This document shows positions 1 to 19,860 of a stretch of DNA of 21,766 nucleotides, in pieces (position 1 is the stretch's first letter; the number at the start of each line of letters is the position of its first letter). The notes beneath the pieces were generated by a model. That model worked only from the letters and a program-made list of their open reading frames with translations, searched no databases and had not been told where the DNA came from. Source of the DNA: a virus. Position numbers and translations under genes: made by a program. The DNA is taken from the IMG/VR virus record IMGVR_UViG_3300009136_000041, positions 1 to 21,766 of that record. One strand, 5' to 3'.

Positions 1-135
1 GGTAACGCTAGAGTTATGTTTTCCCCTGCCCGACATAATGGCGCTATAGGAATACGTGAAGTAGTGAATGATGCACAAAGAGACAATAACGATCTTTTAC
101 CCGTAAGAATTTGCAGCTCTGGATGGTGCGGATAA
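1..135 (+). CDS. Partial gene, C-terminal 44 residues, function unknown
   Basis: An open frame enters from the left edge in frame 1 and stops at TAA 133-135. The visible tail ends ICSSGWCG, with two cysteines close to the end and a fairly polar, basic body. I do not recognise the family. It lies just before the lysis genes, where T7-like phages often have fibre or accessory genes, so a virion appendage protein is possible. This is inferred only from position. The reading frame at the window start would be continuous with the open frame at the window end if the two ends were joined (see findings). Confidence 0.5.
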   Translation, partial: GNARVMFSPARHNGAIGIREVVNDAQRDNNDLLPVRICSSGWCG

Positions 136-211
136 GAACGATAACAAAGAGTTAATGAGCAAGCGTAGCGTAGCCTCTTTAACGAGGTGTTATTAATTAT
201 AAGGGCGTTAA

Positions 212-12803: not shown

Positions 12804-13274
12804 ATGGCACAGTTAGCATTAGTAGCAGTACCGGCAGTGCTTGGAGCTATGCAGCAAACTCAAGCTGGCAAGATCAAGCAAATTGAATCTGAGGTTAATG
12901 CTGCACAAATAGAGACTGCTGCATCTCAGAGAGAAGCGGATCGTAAGGATGCTCTAGCTGCTGCTGTATCAAGTCAAAACGCTGCTGGTGGTGCAAGTGG
13001 TATAACCTTTGAAGGTTCGCCTCTATCGGTCCTAGAGGAAGATATACGACTAGCTGAGGAAGGCAGTGAGCGCGATGCGTTAATGGCTAGATTGGGTGCG
13101 GATGCAGAATTAAATAGAGGTAGGACTGCTGAATCTCAAGCTAGGTCAAATGCACAGCTTGGCCTATTGACTACGGCTGCTACTGTTGGCGCTCAAGGTT
13201 TTAAATCTAGTGCTAAATCTAGCAATGGATTGCAGCCTATTGATATGTCAAAAATACCCGCTAAAAAAAGATAA
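12804..13274 (+). CDS. Internal virion (ejection) protein, T7 gp14-like
   Basis: A 156-residue, alanine-rich helical protein. A short hydrophobic N-terminus (ALVAVPAVLGAM) leads to a long helix (about 20-60), then GGASGITFEGSPLSVLEEDI (62-80), which matches the ASG/GSP signature common in gp14-like ejection proteins of podoviruses. A second charged helix and a basic tail (KIPAKKR) follow. In T7, gp14 forms a pore in the outer membrane during DNA entry. The order after the nozzle gene and before a gp15-like gene is the same as in T7. Confidence 0.75.
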   Translation: MAQLALVAVPAVLGAMQQTQAGKIKQIESEVNAAQIETAASQREADRKDALAAAVSSQNAAGGASGITFEGSPLSVLEEDIRLAEEGSERDALMARLGADAELNRGRTAESQARSNAQLGLLTTAATVGAQGFKSSAKSSNGLQPIDMSKIPAKKR

Positions 13275-13284
13275 GGCTATAAGC

Positions 13285-15315
13285 ATGGCAAGATTCAATC
13301 AGAAAGTAGGCATACAGACACAGAATCTAGCTAGTGGTGCTGAGAGTGGTCTAATGGCGCTTAGTGGTAAGTTCCAGCAAATAGCTCAGAAGAATCTGGC
13401 TAGCAGAGAACAATCAATTATTGAAGATCAAACCTTAACCGGCCAGCAATCATTCGTTAAAGGCGAGCAGCCTAAGTTTATGGACGAGGATAGGATTGTA
13501 GGTGGTGTGTCTGCCAAGGCTTATAATAAGGGTTTGATGGCGGCGTATTCTGCCTCTATTTCTAATGACATGAGGCAGGACTTAGCTAATATCGAGCTGA
13601 ATAACCCTGATGATGTTGCTGAATATAATGCTCAGGTAGAAGCAAATAGGAATGCTTTAGCCAAATCCGTTGATCCTGCTGCACTACCTAATGTGCTAGC
13701 CCGATTCGATGAGCATACTACTAGTGGATCAATTAGGGTTAGGCAGCGTGGCGAGACTAAAGCTAGAGCCAATACTAAGCAGATACTAGGCGATAATATT
13801 AAAAGCTTAGGTGATGAATCAGCCAGGTTAGCTAGATTAGGTGATACCGATGCCGCTAGAAATGGACTGATTGAGCTAAGTAGTCATCTTGACGCGGCTG
13901 TAGCTGCTGAGACAATTACGGCTGTAGATGCAAAAATAGAGTTAGCCAAGTATCAGCAAGAGGCTATGGAGCAAGAAAGCCGACACCAATTTGATGAGGT
14001 ACTAAAAACCGATACCGGCGTAGTCGATGCTCTAGATAAGCTATCTAAAATAGAGGATAAACCGCCAAAGGGCTGGACTCCTGATAAGTGGGATAGCTAT
14101 ATATCAAGCCAAAGATCAGACATTATCAGAGAGAAATCTAGGCGTGATGCTAATAAAGCAGAAGGCTCTAAACTGGCTTTTAACGCTGTTAAGGATTATG
14201 CAAAAGCAGCGACATTAGGCATTGAGGTATCACCAGAAGAAACCGCTAGAGTTAGTGCGCTTGCTTCTACTGATCCAGCACTTAAAAAACAATTTGACAT
14301 CATTAACAATACTAAGCTGTTTGCGCTTACTTCACGCGCCGATAGAAATGAAATGCTTGCAGCTACCAAAGAAGGTGGCTTGCTTGATGTTGACGAATAC
14401 GCCTCTATCGTATCTGCCAACAAAGCTATTAATGATGCTGCTGCTAAAGATGGTTATGCTCTAGGGGTGTCACAAGGGCTGATTAATCCAATACCTATGG
14501 ACATATCAAACCCTAATTCATTTGCTGAGAAGGTTAAGCAGGCCGAAACCTTGTCTATTCATTATGGTGTTACGGTATCGCCATTAAGCGATAGTGAGGC
14601 CACGGCATTAAGTGATGGTTTAAATGATATGACTACCGATGAGAAGGTGGCGTTAGCGAATACGTTGAATGCCTCACCTTCAGTATGGGGTCAAATATCC
14701 GACAAGAATCAAGGTGCTTTTTCTATGGCAGGCGCTACCGGCGACCAGCCAGTAATGACCGCGGTATTCAAAGGTCAAGAATTATTACAGGCAAAACTAG
14801 CTATTCCAGTTAAGCAGTCCTATTATCAGATGAATTTCGATGAGCAGGTTGAAGGCGTTTATGGGGTGCAAGATAGACGCGACCTATTAGCCGCAACGAT
14901 AGCTCATTATGCCGCGACTCATCCTGACGGCGAGTATGATAAAAGTGAGTTTGCTGATTCTATTGAGGCGGTTACTGGCGGTATTGGTGAGGTCAATGGA
15001 TTTAAGGTTGAACTACCTAGAGGGGTTGATAGCGAAACTTTTGAGGACTTTATTGATGATATACAGCCTGAAACTATCGAGGCTTTAGGCGGCGTTCAAG
15101 GCGTATCTAATGAGCGGGCTGTAGAGTTAATCCAGCAATCAAGAGTTAGAAATATTAAATCGGGTAGCTATATCATTGATTATGATGGCACTCAGTTATG
15201 GGGCAATGACAATAAGCCTTTTGTTATTGAATGGTCTGAAGAGTTGCTATCTAGAAATGATGGGTATCAACAATCAATATTAAGAAATAAACGAAGCGGC
15301 CAGGGTGGTAAATAA
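13285..15315 (+). CDS. Internal virion (ejection) protein, T7 gp15-like
   Basis: I start it at ATG 13285, eight bases after AAGG (13273-13276). The frame is open upstream, but that part overlaps the previous gene and encodes unlikely sequence. The 676-residue protein is overwhelmingly helical and charged, with many Ala, Asp, Lys and Gln. The N-terminus (RFNQKVGIQTQNLASGAESGL) and C-terminal SGSYIIDYDGTQLWGN followed by PFVIEWS fit large core proteins placed between gp14- and gp16-like genes. In T7, gp15 builds the periplasmic tunnel with gp16. The function is inferred from position, size and composition. Its stop overlaps the next start (TAATG). Confidence 0.72.
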   Translation: MARFNQKVGIQTQNLASGAESGLMALSGKFQQIAQKNLASREQSIIEDQTLTGQQSFVKGEQPKFMDEDRIVGGVSAKAYNKGLMAAYSASISNDMRQDLANIELNNPDDVAEYNAQVEANRNALAKSVDPAALPNVLARFDEHTTSGSIRVRQRGETKARANTKQILGDNIKSLGDESARLARLGDTDAARNGLIELSSHLDAAVAAETITAVDAKIELAKYQQEAMEQESRHQFDEVLKTDTGVVDALDKLSKIEDKPPKGWTPDKWDSYISSQRSDIIREKSRRDANKAEGSKLAFNAVKDYAKAATLGIEVSPEETARVSALASTDPALKKQFDIINNTKLFALTSRADRNEMLAATKEGGLLDVDEYASIVSANKAINDAAAKDGYALGVSQGLINPIPMDISNPNSFAEKVKQAETLSIHYGVTVSPLSDSEATALSDGLNDMTTDEKVALANTLNASPSVWGQISDKNQGAFSMAGATGDQPVMTAVFKGQELLQAKLAIPVKQSYYQMNFDEQVEGVYGVQDRRDLLAATIAHYAATHPDGEYDKSEFADSIEAVTGGIGEVNGFKVELPRGVDSETFEDFIDDIQPETIEALGGVQGVSNERAVELIQQSRVRNIKSGSYIIDYDGTQLWGNDNKPFVIEWSEELLSRNDGYQQSILRNKRSGQGGK

Positions 15316-17567
15316 TGCCATTTGTAAGCGGTAAAGAAAGCAGAGAGCTAACACAAGGTTTAACGCCTTATGATTCAAGTACTGCGGCTACTGATTTTGG
15401 TGAGGTATTCGCTGCATCACTTGGCCAAGTTATTGATGAAGATTTAACCATATCGCACTCTTTAAACCGCGAAGGGTGGGAAGAAAGACGGAGCTTAACT
15501 GCTGAAGCTATAAACACTGATCAAGTTGACCGGCATAAATACATGGACCGGCGTGGTAAGTTTGACTATGACAGGCTCGCTCAGGAGATGCCTGAGCTAG
15601 GTTTAAAGTCTGATCAAGTGTTAGCGGATGAAAGAAATGCCTTGTTAGCTCAAAGGCGCGGCTATGCTCAAGATGTTATCGAGCGTGGTAGTGGTATTGC
15701 TCAATTCTTGGGTGCTGCCAATGCTTATATGCTTGATCCCGTTAATATTGCCACTATTGGCGTGGCTACTGCATCTGTATCAGCGAAATCATTGTCTGTA
15801 TTAGGTCGTGCGCTAATGGTTGGGCGTAATGAGGCGGCGTTAAATGCTGCATCTGAGCTAATGATTCAGCCTTTTGTGTATGGTCATAAGCAAGAAATCG
15901 ATTCTCCTTATGCTGCATCTGATGCTATTAAGAATATAGCATTTGCGGCGGCTGGCGGCGCGGTGTTTGGCTCTGCTGTTGGCGGTATTAGTGGAGTAAT
16001 TGGTAAATCTGCCAAAGCATCAAAGGGTATAGAGCCTAATATTGTTGCTAGGGATGCTCAAGAGCCTGATAGCTTGGCTGAAGGTGTTGATGCACCTAAT
16101 GAGGTTAAGGCATTTAACCTGTCAAACAAAATCGAGACAGCTATACCTGATATTGATTCACCTAGAAAAGTTCAAGAGTTTAAACAATATTATGAAAGTA
16201 ATGGAATAGATGTTAATGCTGACAACACTATAACTTTATACCATGCAACAAATAAGGAATCCGCTGATAAGATTATATCTTCTAAGCAGTTTTTAGGCAC
16301 AGATTCGCCTATTGGTGGGATGGTAGACGCTGATATAGAAACAGCATCATTTTTTGGATTTAGCAAAGAATGGGTAGAAAGCACATGGAATACTGGGTCA
16401 TCTCAAAAAGTCATTGAAGTTAAAGTTCCAGTTCAATATATAAGGCATGGTGGGCAAAACTTCCAAGAGGCTTATTTTGAAGGAGGGCTTAAACAGTCCG
16501 GCGATGTTTGGATACCTAATAAACTATCTGAATCTTTTGTGGATACTATTGCGCCAATGGAGTACAAGCCTGTAATTGCCGATGTGGTTGATGCTCCAAT
16601 TAACGGTAGCACTGTTGGCGGCATAAGCGGCTATCTATCTAAGGCAATCAAAAGCGCAGAAACATTAGATATAGTCACTCCTGATGTAGAGCAATCGTTA
16701 CAGTATCTTTCACGAATGCAAGAGAGTATAGAATCGGGTCGATTATCTAGAGATAACTATGATTCTGTAATGAAAGATTATGATTCTGTATTAAGCGGCG
16801 AGTATGCCAGCTATAAGGCTGCTGCAGATAATACTGTTAAGCAATCTCAGAAAATAATTAATGATACGCTAAAGAATGAGGATACATTAGGTCAGTTTAT
16901 ATCTAAGAGCGGCGGTATTGATAGAGAGCTAATACAGGCTGAGGGTGTTGATCCTGTAGCGTTTAAAGATAGAGGCAAGGTGTTTGGCAAGCCGCTATAT
17001 AGAAAGAAAGGCGGCAAATCTGCTGATGAGCTAGCTGAAGCATTGAACGAAGCAGGCTATAAGGGTGGTAGATTAACGGCTAACGATGTTGTTTCTATGA
17101 TCCATGACATAGCCAACGGCGCTGATCCATTAATGAATGGTGCAGCTAAAGCTAAGGTTGATTTTCATCAAAATATTATAGATGACTTCTCTCGATCTAC
17201 TGATGATGGTTATCTTAAAAGCTTATACGGTGATGTAAGAAAGCTTGATATTGAAGAAGATGTTAAGTATTACAACGACCTAGAAGCTAGAAAGGTTGAG
17301 GCTAATAAGCCATCTAAAACACCATCTGACTATTTTGAGCCACCTAAAGCCAAGCCTAAGAAAGCAATGGGCACCGATAGAGAGCGAGAGATATTAAAGC
17401 GTACTGGAATAGATGAAGATTTCGATGCAGATATGGACGCTTACTCTAGGTTAGATAACCCTGCTATAATTAAGGACGGCGAAATGGTAGAGGCATCTAG
17501 TTTTATGAAAGAGTTAGACGATGAGATAGGCGGCATAGAATCCGTATTGGTGTGTGCCCGTGGCTAG
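15315..17567 (+). CDS. Ejection protein, N-terminal gp16-like part, with embedded ART-like domain
   Basis: The 750-residue product begins with a charged helical part (1-125). A segment with the gp16-like pattern follows (FLGAANAYMLDPVNIATIG, 131-149; SELMIQPFVYGHKQEIDSPYA, about 180-200; an Ala/Gly-rich hydrophobic stretch to about 229). This is probably the membrane-entering core. Residues about 283-398 look like an ADP-ribosyltransferase domain: LYHATN with H310, ASFFG (344-348), and QEAYFE with E385/E389 (see findings). Residues about 527-612 (SKSGGIDRELIQAEG, then ADELAEALNEAGY) match a module of phage polyvalent and ejection proteins. A Lys/Pro-rich linker and acidic tail follow. No lytic transglycosylase domain is visible, unlike T7 gp16. 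The large core of gp16 seems to continue in the next gene. Confidence 0.75.
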   Translation: MPFVSGKESRELTQGLTPYDSSTAATDFGEVFAASLGQVIDEDLTISHSLNREGWEERRSLTAEAINTDQVDRHKYMDRRGKFDYDRLAQEMPELGLKSDQVLADERNALLAQRRGYAQDVIERGSGIAQFLGAANAYMLDPVNIATIGVATASVSAKSLSVLGRALMVGRNEAALNAASELMIQPFVYGHKQEIDSPYAASDAIKNIAFAAAGGAVFGSAVGGISGVIGKSAKASKGIEPNIVARDAQEPDSLAEGVDAPNEVKAFNLSNKIETAIPDIDSPRKVQEFKQYYESNGIDVNADNTITLYHATNKESADKIISSKQFLGTDSPIGGMVDADIETASFFGFSKEWVESTWNTGSSQKVIEVKVPVQYIRHGGQNFQEAYFEGGLKQSGDVWIPNKLSESFVDTIAPMEYKPVIADVVDAPINGSTVGGISGYLSKAIKSAETLDIVTPDVEQSLQYLSRMQESIESGRLSRDNYDSVMKDYDSVLSGEYASYKAAADNTVKQSQKIINDTLKNEDTLGQFISKSGGIDRELIQAEGVDPVAFKDRGKVFGKPLYRKKGGKSADELAEALNEAGYKGGRLTANDVVSMIHDIANGADPLMNGAAKAKVDFHQNIIDDFSRSTDDGYLKSLYGDVRKLDIEEDVKYYNDLEARKVEANKPSKTPSDYFEPPKAKPKKAMGTDREREILKRTGIDEDFDADMDAYSRLDNPAIIKDGEMVEASSFMKELDDEIGGIESVLVCARG
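16161..16508 (+). other. Region encoding the ART-like domain
   Basis: This part of the ejection gene codes residues about 283-398. It carries LYHAT (His in the first motif), a strand with ASFFGFS, and QEAYFE at the third position of the ART fold. The DNA reads more A/T-rich than the flanks by eye (for example around 16185-16260 and 16340-16450). The order of the motifs matches the H-[Y/S]-E type layout. The second-motif tyrosine is not evident, so activity is uncertain. Confidence 0.5.
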
Positions 17568-19860
17568 CTTTGATTTTTGTATCGACCAAGCCTTTAAAGA
17601 CGGCAAGATAACCAAAGCCACAGCTAACTCAATTAAGGAATCTGCTGATCCAGAAGATGCTATTAACGGGTTGGTGGCTGATCTAACCAGACAGAAGCGA
17701 GAGGCGGCTATACAGGCTGTTAGGCTTGCTGATGGGTGGGCTAAGGTTTCCTCTCATCCTGTTTCTAAACATGACGGTCTTATATCGTTAATGGTTCGTG
17801 ATCAAACGGAGAAAGCCGGCTATGCTAATGTTGATTATTTGGCGAAGCGTAACCATGCTAAGTACAACTCCATGTTTGCTGATGCTTTATCTCGTTTTCG
17901 TACTCGTAGAATTGGATTCGAGCAAGACGAAGCAGGACTTACAAAGCTCATCAAAGCAGTCTACGGAGAGGCAGTTGACGATCCAGAAATCGAAGCGTTT
18001 GCAAGACAGTGGGCAGACACGCTTGAGCAGACAAGAGTGGACTTTAATGCTAAAGGGGGATCAATATCTAAGAATGAATCTTACTTACTACCCCAAAACC
18101 ATGACGCTAAAGCCATAAGAGAGATGGGTTTAGACCATTGGAAGGCTAGAATAATGCCTATGCTAGATCGGTCTAAAATGACTGATGATTTAGGCGAGCA
18201 ATTAACAGATAGAGATTTCACTGAAGCTTTAGATTATGTTTATGAAACCATTACTACCGGTGGATTAAATAAAACTAAGGACTTTTCTGTACCTAGACTT
18301 GGCAAAAAGATGTCACGCAAAGGTTCAGAGCAAAGATTTATCTACTTTAAAGATGCTGATAGCTGGATGGCATACCAAAAAGAATTCGGCAAGGGTGATA
18401 TATTTACGACACTGACCGACTCTTTAGAGGCTAAAGCCAATGATACCGCAATGATGGAGATTTTCGGCACTAGTCCAGAATCAACATATCTGGCGCTAAA
18501 GAATCAAATTATTAAAGAAGGTGGCTTATCTCAAAGGCAGCAAAGCCTAAACGATGCAGTTTATAACGTGGTATCAGGTAAAACCAGTGACGGTAACTTA
18601 ACCGGTGTAGCTGATTTTATGCAATCTACCCGTAATGTGTTGACTGCTTCCACTTTAGGCGGTGCATTCTTATCTGCATTGTCCGATGTTGGCTTTCAAG
18701 GTTTGACCTCCCACTATAATGGCTTAATGGCATCTACTGTATTAGGCCGTCAAATGAAGCTGATGAGTCCAACAAAAGAAGCTGATCGCATTATGGCGGT
18801 CAAGATTGGCTTAGGTGCTGAGGCGTGGCTAGGTCGCGCTACAGGCTCTAACCGATACGCTGACATATTTGGTACGGGTAAGACTGCAAAGCTGGCTGAA
18901 GGCGTTATGCGCGGTTCGTTGCTTGCCCCGTGGACTGATGCAGGCCGTAAAGCGTTTGGCATGGAATATAGCTCGATGCTTGCCGATAACTTTGGCAAAT
19001 CATTTGATGATCTATCAAGGCATACCAAAAGAGCTTTTGAGGCATACGGCATTAACTCTAATGACTGGGATTTATTTAGGGCTTCAGATACTTTAGATTT
19101 TGAGGGCGCTAAATACGCTGATTTAACTAAAGAAGGCGGCAAAAAGTTTAATCAAATGATTATGACTGAGACTGATTTCGCCGTACCTACTCCAGACGCT
19201 AAGGTTAGAGCGATGACTACAGGCGGCACAGGTCGCTCAACGGTTGGAGGGCAGACTTGGCGTTCCGTTATGATGCTCAAGTCTTTCCCTATTACCATGA
19301 TGACTACTCACTTTTATCGTGGTGCTTATCAGGCTACAGCATTAGAGAAGATCGGCTATCTTGGGACTCTAGCGGCAACCACTACAATTATGGGCGCTAT
19401 TTCGGTACAAGCTAAAGATTTGGCATTTGGTAGAGAGCCTAGACCAGTAGACGAGAAATTAATGGCGGCTGCATTCATGCAGGGCGGTGGCTTAGGAATA
19501 TTTGGCGATTTCGTATTCTCTGACCATAATAGATATGGCGGCGGTTTTAGTGCTACCGCTTTTGGTGTTACTGGGCAGCTAGCAGATACCTCGTTAAAAT
19601 ATACTATTGGCAATGTTGCACAAGCTATCAAGGGTGAAGAAACCAATATATTAGGCGAGACAGTACAGCTAGCCAAAAGATATAGCCCTAGTGTGTGGCA
19701 GACAAGGTTGTTTACTAATGCTATATTTGATCAAATGGAATTACTAGCTAACCCTAACTCACAAAGAAGATTTAACAAGATCGTTAAAAGACGCCAAAAA
19801 AACTATGACCAAGGTTATTGGTGGCGACCAGGCGAAACAACACCAGAGGCTTTAAAATGA
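17554..19860 (+). CDS. Ejection protein, gp16-like C-terminal part
   Basis: A 768-residue protein starting at GTG 17554 (a second GTG lies at 17560), overlapping the previous gene by 14 bases in another frame. The N-terminus FDFCIDQAFKDGKITKATAN is the helix pair typical of such proteins. Later parts include LTASTLGGAFLSALSDVGFQG (a hydrophobic, glycine-rich helix), VMMLKSFPITMMTTHFYRGA, ending FGDFVFSDHNRYGGGFSA and a basic C-terminus (FNKIVKRRQKNYDQGYWWRPG). These match the C-terminal region of gp16-type proteins that enter the host membrane during DNA ejection. The SD sequence is poor, so coupling to the upstream gene is likely. Confidence 0.75.
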   Translation: MPVASFDFCIDQAFKDGKITKATANSIKESADPEDAINGLVADLTRQKREAAIQAVRLADGWAKVSSHPVSKHDGLISLMVRDQTEKAGYANVDYLAKRNHAKYNSMFADALSRFRTRRIGFEQDEAGLTKLIKAVYGEAVDDPEIEAFARQWADTLEQTRVDFNAKGGSISKNESYLLPQNHDAKAIREMGLDHWKARIMPMLDRSKMTDDLGEQLTDRDFTEALDYVYETITTGGLNKTKDFSVPRLGKKMSRKGSEQRFIYFKDADSWMAYQKEFGKGDIFTTLTDSLEAKANDTAMMEIFGTSPESTYLALKNQIIKEGGLSQRQQSLNDAVYNVVSGKTSDGNLTGVADFMQSTRNVLTASTLGGAFLSALSDVGFQGLTSHYNGLMASTVLGRQMKLMSPTKEADRIMAVKIGLGAEAWLGRATGSNRYADIFGTGKTAKLAEGVMRGSLLAPWTDAGRKAFGMEYSSMLADNFGKSFDDLSRHTKRAFEAYGINSNDWDLFRASDTLDFEGAKYADLTKEGGKKFNQMIMTETDFAVPTPDAKVRAMTTGGTGRSTVGGQTWRSVMMLKSFPITMMTTHFYRGAYQATALEKIGYLGTLAATTTIMGAISVQAKDLAFGREPRPVDEKLMAAAFMQGGGLGIFGDFVFSDHNRYGGGFSATAFGVTGQLADTSLKYTIGNVAQAIKGEETNILGETVQLAKRYSPSVWQTRLFTNAIFDQMELLANPNSQRRFNKIVKRRQKNYDQGYWWRPGETTPEALK

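What the first reader, a model, noticed from the sequence alone, without database searches (positions are those of the whole stretch)
16161..16508. ADP-ribosyltransferase-like domain embedded in an ejected virion protein
Residues about 283-398 of the gp16-like protein carry motifs in ART order: LYHATN (H310), a strand with ASFFG (344-348) and QEAYFE (E385, E389). ART domains inside large phage proteins are known (the polyvalent-protein ARTs, T4 Alt), but here one seems inserted in a podovirus ejection protein. If active, it would enter the host with the DNA and could modify host targets in the first minutes of infection. The motifs are seen directly. The fold and activity are inferred, and the second-motif Tyr is missing or replaced.
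Basis: partly seen in the sequence, partly recalled or inferred. Interest (0 to 1): 0.72.

Follow-up and report, generated by a model that had tools for sequence, protein, structure and literature searches.

The report
Enzyme-like insert in phage ejection protein
A short-tailed phage carries, inside a protein that is probably pushed into the host cell together with its DNA, an extra segment related to enzymes that tag host molecules with ADP-ribose; close relatives lack it or carry a different enzyme-like segment there, which suggests a swappable delivery slot, although activity of this copy is unproven.

Summary
The 750-aa protein at 15315-17567 is a podovirus ejection protein. Residues about 208-440 are absent from its closest positional orthologs (534-aa relatives align to 1-207 and 440-750), so the segment is an insertion. 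A two-copy VGGISG motif flanks it. Residues 302-378 match a small phage domain family (19 bits; best of 5000 shuffles 9.9). A homologous domain (L006) folds confidently (pLDDT 83.5). Its PDB neighbours are almost all ADP-ribosyltransferases (ARTs): KptA/Tpt1, TreTu, RhsP2, diphtheria toxin, PARPs. The window's own model was poor (pLDDT 49), so its fold rests on homology. The segment is not a PF18760 member, but an ortholog (L043) carries a true PF18760 ART in the same region, and a sister phage with about 98% identical flanks lacks it. Other orthologs of this gene carry Zeta toxin, ddrB-ParB, PBECR1 or lysozyme domains. This fits the known polyvalent-protein theme. New are a divergent ART subfamily and a cargo slot just behind two hydrophobic segments.

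The parts
15315..17567 (+). Ejection-protein gene, 750 aa, that carries the insert
   Evidence: synteny with SPN1S_0018, K300_0018, ZCVPP1 and NVP1182O_16 upstream of the phrog_684 virion protein
15315..15998 (+). Conserved N-terminal part, residues 1-228, 40-54% identical to close positional orthologs; weak match to phrog_342 (T7 gp16-type internal virion protein)
   Evidence: phrog_3003 E 6e-6 and phrog_342 E 1e-3
15708..15803 (+). First hydrophobic segment, residues 132-163
   Evidence: hydropathy scan, also present in orthologs
15921..15998 (+). Second hydrophobic segment, residues 203-228, directly before the insert
15976..15994 (+). Left copy of the duplicated junction (encodes VGGISG)
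   Evidence: 16 of 19 nt identical to the right copy, 636 bp apart
15995..16630 (+). Inserted segment, about 636 bp (about 212 aa); orthologs have only a short linker here
   Evidence: G+C 38% for residues 240-430 against 46% for residues 1-230
16173..16586 (+). ART-like domain, residues about 287-424
   Evidence: profile match at 302-378; phrog_6170 match at 16218-16436, E 1.4e-5; fold of the homologous domain
16242..16244 (+). H310, motif-1 histidine in LYHATN
   Evidence: aligned with the conserved H of nearly all family members
16350..16361 (+). F346-F347-G348-F349, degenerate second motif (YFST / GFFS in relatives)
16467..16481 (+).
   Evidence: not clearly aligned to the relatives' acid
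16503..16505 (+). D397, alternative candidate for the strand-5 acid (SGDVWIP)
   Evidence: aligned to E84 of the L006 domain in A8
16612..16630 (+). Right copy of the duplicated junction (encodes VGGISG)
16632..17564 (+). Conserved C-terminal part, residues 440-750, up to 44% identical to orthologs; C747 is the invariant near-terminal cysteine
12804..13274 (+). Likely gp14-like ejection protein
   Evidence: weak phrog_418 match, E 0.09; position
13186..15315 (+). Likely gp15-like ejection protein
   Evidence: similar to the syntenic ZCVPP1 and SPN1S proteins; position
17554..19860 (+). phrog_684 virion structural protein, the synteny anchor
   Evidence: E 4.9e-153; used to collect 160 positional loci

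Best explanation
Residues about 287-424 form an ART-fold domain of the H-[YF]-[ED] type (the KptA / PARP / diphtheria-toxin side of the superfamily). It was inserted as cargo into a gp16-like ejection protein of an epsilon15/T7-like podovirus, at a site just after two hydrophobic segments. The carrier is packed in the head and ejected with the DNA. By analogy with T7 gp16, the part behind the hydrophobic segments would reach the host cytoplasm, where the ART would use NAD+ to modify a host molecule before phage genes are expressed. Shown here: domain homology, the insertion, exchange of domains in orthologs, the predicted fold of a homolog. Inferred: the fold of the window copy itself, ejection, topology, catalysis and target.
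For: Window segment matches the family profile, 19.1 bits against 9.9 for the best of 5000 shuffles. L006-domain model pLDDT 83.5, pTM 0.78. Foldseek ranks 1-24 in the PDB are KptA/Tpt1, the Rhs toxins TreTu and RhsP2, and CNFy, best E 7e-3. VIA: TreTu Z 6.8 over 80 residues, RhsP2 6.7, diphtheria toxin 6.2, KptA 5.6, PARP14 4.9. A BFVD neighbour is annotated ADP-ribosyltransferase. Profile-profile score against a set around a Pfam-verified ART-PolyVal domain 28-31.5, best of 200 column shuffles 15.9. Homologs weakly match ART-PolyVal, PARP and DRAT and KptA. Orthologs lack the segment. L043 has PF18760 in the same region at E 2.5e-14, while L042, about 98% identical in the flanking DNA, lacks it. 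Hydrophobic pair just before the slot.
Against: The window's own model is poor, pLDDT 49. No Pfam, NCBIfam or PDB sequence match to an ART for the window domain itself. VIA Z values below 8 are only middling. The second-motif Tyr is out of register, and the acid position varies in relatives (E, Q, H or none), so the domain could be inactive. Ejection rests on synteny; T7 gp16 similarity is weak (E 1e-3), and the N-terminal profile found no ejection protein among solved structures.
Confidence: 0.66

Rival explanations
1. A catalytically dead ART-fold module kept for binding (NAD+, ADP-ribose, a host or phage protein) or as a structural spacer in the ejection protein.
For: Tyr of the second motif is not in register, the acid is uncertain, and the acid position varies in mycobacteriophage relatives.
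Against: H310 is kept; L006 and L008 keep a full H-Y-E set; carriers exchange this region for recognised enzyme domains, which fits enzymatic cargo better.
Confidence: 0.4
2. The segment is an ordinary, rapidly diverging part of the ejection protein with no ART ancestry, and the motifs are coincidence.
For: Ejection proteins diverge fast and mosaically (PMC8954989); no curated family matches the window segment.
Against: Absent from close orthologs; homologous domain in unrelated phage proteins with an ART-like predicted fold; score well above shuffles.
Confidence: 0.08
3. The ART-like domain acts on nucleic acid or on the phage's own molecules (for example KptA-like chemistry) rather than on a host protein.
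For: The best Foldseek matches are KptA/Tpt1 RNA 2'-phosphotransferases, and the cyanophage relative weakly matches KptA models.
Against: Rank among small ART domains does not fix the substrate; VIA ranks toxin ARTs (TreTu, RhsP2, diphtheria toxin) slightly higher.
Confidence: 0.15

Closest known systems
ART-PolyVal (PF18760; Tox-ART-HYD2 clade) in polyvalent proteins (PMC5512222)
   Same: Small H-type ART domain within a large protein predicted to be injected with the DNA; profile-profile similarity over motifs 1 and 2 above shuffles; a true member sits in the same region of the orthologous ejection protein L043.
   Different: The window segment does not match PF18760, lacks the in-register Tyr, and is closer to a separate phage family (L006, DirkDirk gp109, phrog_6170).
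phrog_6170 / small mycobacteriophage ART-like proteins (DirkDirk gp109; Silverleaf protein annotated ADP-ribosyltransferase)
   Same: Same domain family by profile.
   Different: The mycobacteriophage members are stand-alone 114-128 aa proteins near tRNA genes, not virion-protein inserts.
T4 Alt
   Same: Head-packaged ART injected with the DNA that modifies host RNA polymerase (PMC5512222).
   Different: R-S-E type active site, separate protein, myovirus.
T7 gp16 / epsilon15-type ejection proteins (PMC8954989)
   Same: Gene position, hydrophobic segments, mosaic domain content.
   Different: T7 gp16 carries an N-terminal peptidoglycan hydrolase; here an ART-like domain sits behind the hydrophobic segments.
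Synechococcus phage S-CBP42 internal virion protein (1610 aa)
   Same: LYHATN ART-like stretch inside an internal virion protein.
   Different: T7-like cyanophage; weakly KptA/PARP-like domain in a much larger protein.

Membership tests
ART superfamily (H-Y-E/D side) | ART fold | tested here: inconclusive
   Own model pLDDT 49; the homologous L006 domain is ART-like, so the window fold is inferred by homology
ART superfamily (H-Y-E/D side) | Histidine in strand 1 | tested here: met
   H310, aligned in nearly all members
ART superfamily (H-Y-E/D side) | Aromatic (Tyr) in strand 2 | tested here: inconclusive
   F346, F347, F349 nearby; the aligned residue is G348 or F347
ART superfamily (H-Y-E/D side) | Acid at strand 5 | tested here: inconclusive
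   D397, E385 or E389; alignments disagree
ART superfamily (H-Y-E/D side) | NAD+-dependent transferase activity | not testable with these tools
   needs an assay
ART-PolyVal PF18760 | Match to the Pfam model above its cut-off | tested here: not met
   no PF18760 match reported for the window domain at E <= 10; ortholog L043 does match, 54.7 bits against a cut-off of 31.2
gp16-like podovirus ejection protein | Gene position after gp14- and gp15-like genes, within the virion gene block | tested here: met
gp16-like podovirus ejection protein | Sequence similarity to the T7 gp16 family | tested here: inconclusive
   phrog_342 E 1e-3 over residues 117-235
gp16-like podovirus ejection protein | Presence in the virion and ejection | not testable with these tools
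   needs mass spectrometry and infection experiments
Polyvalent protein (PMC5512222) | Several disparate domains in one virion-associated polypeptide | tested here: inconclusive
   Window protein: one recognisable inserted domain plus ejection-protein parts; orthologs by position carry Zeta toxin, ddrB-ParB, PBECR1, lysozyme

The most novel reading that the evidence does not exclude
The gp16-like ejection protein of a broad group of epsilon15-like podoviruses is a delivery platform with a cargo slot behind its two hydrophobic segments. Whole enzyme domains (ARTs of two subfamilies, and elsewhere in the protein kinases, nucleases and hydrolases) are exchanged between nearly identical phages and reach the host cytoplasm before any phage gene is expressed.
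Probability: 0.35. Interest if true: 0.75.

Novelty: new variant of a known kind. Interest (0 to 1): 0.52.

Why it matters
It ties a general prediction (virion-embedded ARTs delivered with the DNA) to a specific slot in an ejection protein. A natural pair of sister loci with about 98% identical flanks, one with and one without a recognised ART, makes the effect of such cargo testable. It also flags a divergent phage ART family without a Pfam or NCBIfam model, and shows that domain exchange in this gene extends to other enzymes.

Tried and rejected
Structure prediction of the window domain itself (A14) gave pLDDT 49 and was not used for fold searches. Sequence searches of the PDB with the single domain gave nothing; with the family profile A17 only weak matches, mostly ARTs, E 0.36-1.2. 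The N-terminal profile found no ejection protein in the PDB. Full-length searches found no close relative of the whole protein in viral or genome contigs, nor of the region in phages by megablast. phrog_6170 was not found in 398 genomes of one phylum, a search in which nothing rang, so absence is not shown. Alignment A2 had no stretch conserved enough for a scan. Forcing one alignment of the strand-5 region failed: different trims of the relatives gave different pairings, so the acid is left open. Considered and rejected: coincidence of motifs; membership in PF18760; E385/E389 as an established catalytic pair.

Full report
What was checked. The ORF at 15315-17567 encodes 750 aa. The window is a 21.8-kb virus record with a podovirus gene order: portal (PF12236), coat protein (PF19821), tail proteins, a 156-aa, a 709-aa and the 750-aa protein, a phrog_684 virion protein and a tail-fibre-like protein. 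The order matches SPN1S-type (Uetakevirus) and Vibrio phages.

The carrier. Residues of the N-terminal third have relatives in the syntenic proteins of Vibrio phages ZCVPP1, K300 and 1.182.O and a weak match to phrog_342, the T7 gp16-type internal virion protein, E 1e-3. I used phrog_684 as an anchor to collect 80 viral and 80 genome loci and took the ORF directly upstream in 155 of them. Close orthologs align to window 1-207 and 440-750 and lack what is between: L029 and L035 (534 aa each) are the clearest, and L034 shows the same gap with overlapping ends. A multiple alignment places the gap between the VGGISG region and TPDV. In the window VGGISG occurs twice, at 15976-15994 and 16612-16630, 16 of 19 nt identical and 636 bp apart. 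I read this as a duplicated junction around an insert of about 212 aa; a 19-nt two-copy repeat could also be chance. G+C is 38% for residues 240-430 against 46% before and 40% after.

The domain. BLASTP finds L006, L008 and DirkDirk gp109 (E-values are for a small local set). A profile made without the window sequence scores 19.1 bits at 302-378, and a profile without L006 and L008 as well still scores 18.1; the best of 5000 shuffles scored 9.9 and 9.0. phrog_6170 matches the window at 16218-16436, E 1.4e-5 for this record. The window domain has no credible Pfam match and no credible NCBIfam match. Its relatives weakly touch ART families: ART-PolyVal for ScoobyDoobyDoo gp114, PARP for S-CBP42, DRAT for DAC16 (E 0.04-0.08), and KptA for S-CBP42, E 0.003. 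Each is weak alone; together they point one way.

The fold. The window domain alone modelled badly, pLDDT 49. The homologous L006 domain, with seven relatives in its alignment, modelled well, pLDDT 83.5 and pTM 0.78. This was the second of two attempts and a different query, so the good model is of a homolog about 30-36% identical over the aligned part, not of the window. Foldseek against the PDB lists KptA/Tpt1, the Rhs toxins TreTu and RhsP2 and CNFy at ranks 1-24, best E 7e-3, before unrelated folds begin. VIA-align gives TreTu Z 6.8 over 80 residues at 2.5 A, RhsP2 6.7, diphtheria toxin 6.2, KptA 5.6, PARP14 4.9. These Z values are middling, but the list is consistent. In the viral library one neighbour is annotated ADP-ribosyltransferase, E 4e-4. 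A profile-profile comparison with a set around the Pfam-verified ART of L043 scores 28-31.5 over about 50 columns covering motifs 1 and 2, against at most 15.9 in 200 column shuffles; a core subset of five sequences scored only 17.6. I conclude that the family is ART-like and that the window copy is a divergent member by homology.

Active site. L006 has H25, Y49 and E84 in the expected order. The window keeps H310. The Tyr position falls on G348 or F347, with F346 and F349 beside it. For the acid, one alignment pairs D397 (SGDVWIP) with E84; other trims pair differently. I prefer D397 because the low-confidence window model puts a strand right after it and a helix at 380-389, which is weak support. 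In mycobacteriophage relatives the acid is E, Q, H or absent. Activity is therefore open; I put it near 40%.

Cargo exchange. L043, a 572-aa ortholog, has PF18760 ART-PolyVal at 290-426, E 2.5e-14. L042 is 98% identical to L043 in the DNA on both sides but lacks this stretch. L058 carries a weaker PF18760 match, E 2.4e-4, below the cut-off. Among 98 representatives, 14 match Zeta toxin, 13 ddrB-ParB, 7 Phage_lysozyme2, 4 PBECR1, 3 SLT, 3 GH108 and 2 ART-PolyVal. Those domains are spread over the protein; many, such as the Zeta toxins near residues 830-1120, are not in the slot used in the window. Most of these representatives are distant and were assigned by gene position only.

How it may work. 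Two hydrophobic segments, residues 132-163 and 203-228, lie just before the insert and recur in orthologs. In T7 the gp16 N-terminal domain stays in the periplasm and the C-terminal domain is thought to reach the cytoplasm (PMC8954989). By analogy the insert would be cytoplasmic, as T4 Alt is (PMC5512222). This step is inference.

Known context. Polyvalent proteins with ART and PBECR domains, and an ART in a podovirus vRNAP, were described in 2017 (PMC5512222). A later survey found ARTs in about 3% of podoviruses and argued that many viral ARTs are packaged (PMC9503650). Mosaic ejection proteins are also known (PMC8954989). What is added here is a divergent ART subfamily without a Pfam or NCBIfam model, its insertion site in an epsilon15-like ejection protein, and a natural with/without pair for a second ART in the orthologous gene.

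Noticed in passing
window 17553-17555 (C747) and orthologs L029-L188: A cysteine close to the C-terminus is invariant in both alignments of positional orthologs (47 and 51 sequences), and a Cys lies within the last 8 residues in 137 of 155; its role is unknown.
   Followed up: partly
window 16773-17177 (residues 487-621): This C-terminal stretch is 40-50% identical to parts of very large (over 2500 aa) proteins of many Vibrio phages.
   Followed up: partly
L006 1791-3485, L008 3864-5609, L058 3023-5923: ART-like domain together with a RelA/SpoT-like stretch in one phage protein; only L006 has a weak Pfam match (E 0.013), the others are by eye.
   Followed up: no
L037 and L042, second half of the ejection protein: A stretch with LDGHHRA, resembling ParB-like domains, where L043 has a different sequence: a second exchangeable region.
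   Followed up: no
L016, L018, L019, L200 (mycobacteriophages): Small ART-like proteins near tRNA genes in which the acid position is E, Q, absent or H, while the histidine is kept.
   Followed up: partly
L038, L039, L041, L046, L047, L055: Orthologs of about 808 aa have an insert of some 300 aa at another site, between the equivalents of window residues 713 and 714; no Pfam match in L038.
   Followed up: partly
L109 (Teredinibacter sp. ISS155) and L036: The genes upstream of the phrog_684 protein do not include a recognisable ejection protein; the neighbourhood looks partly like DNA-replication genes.
   Followed up: no
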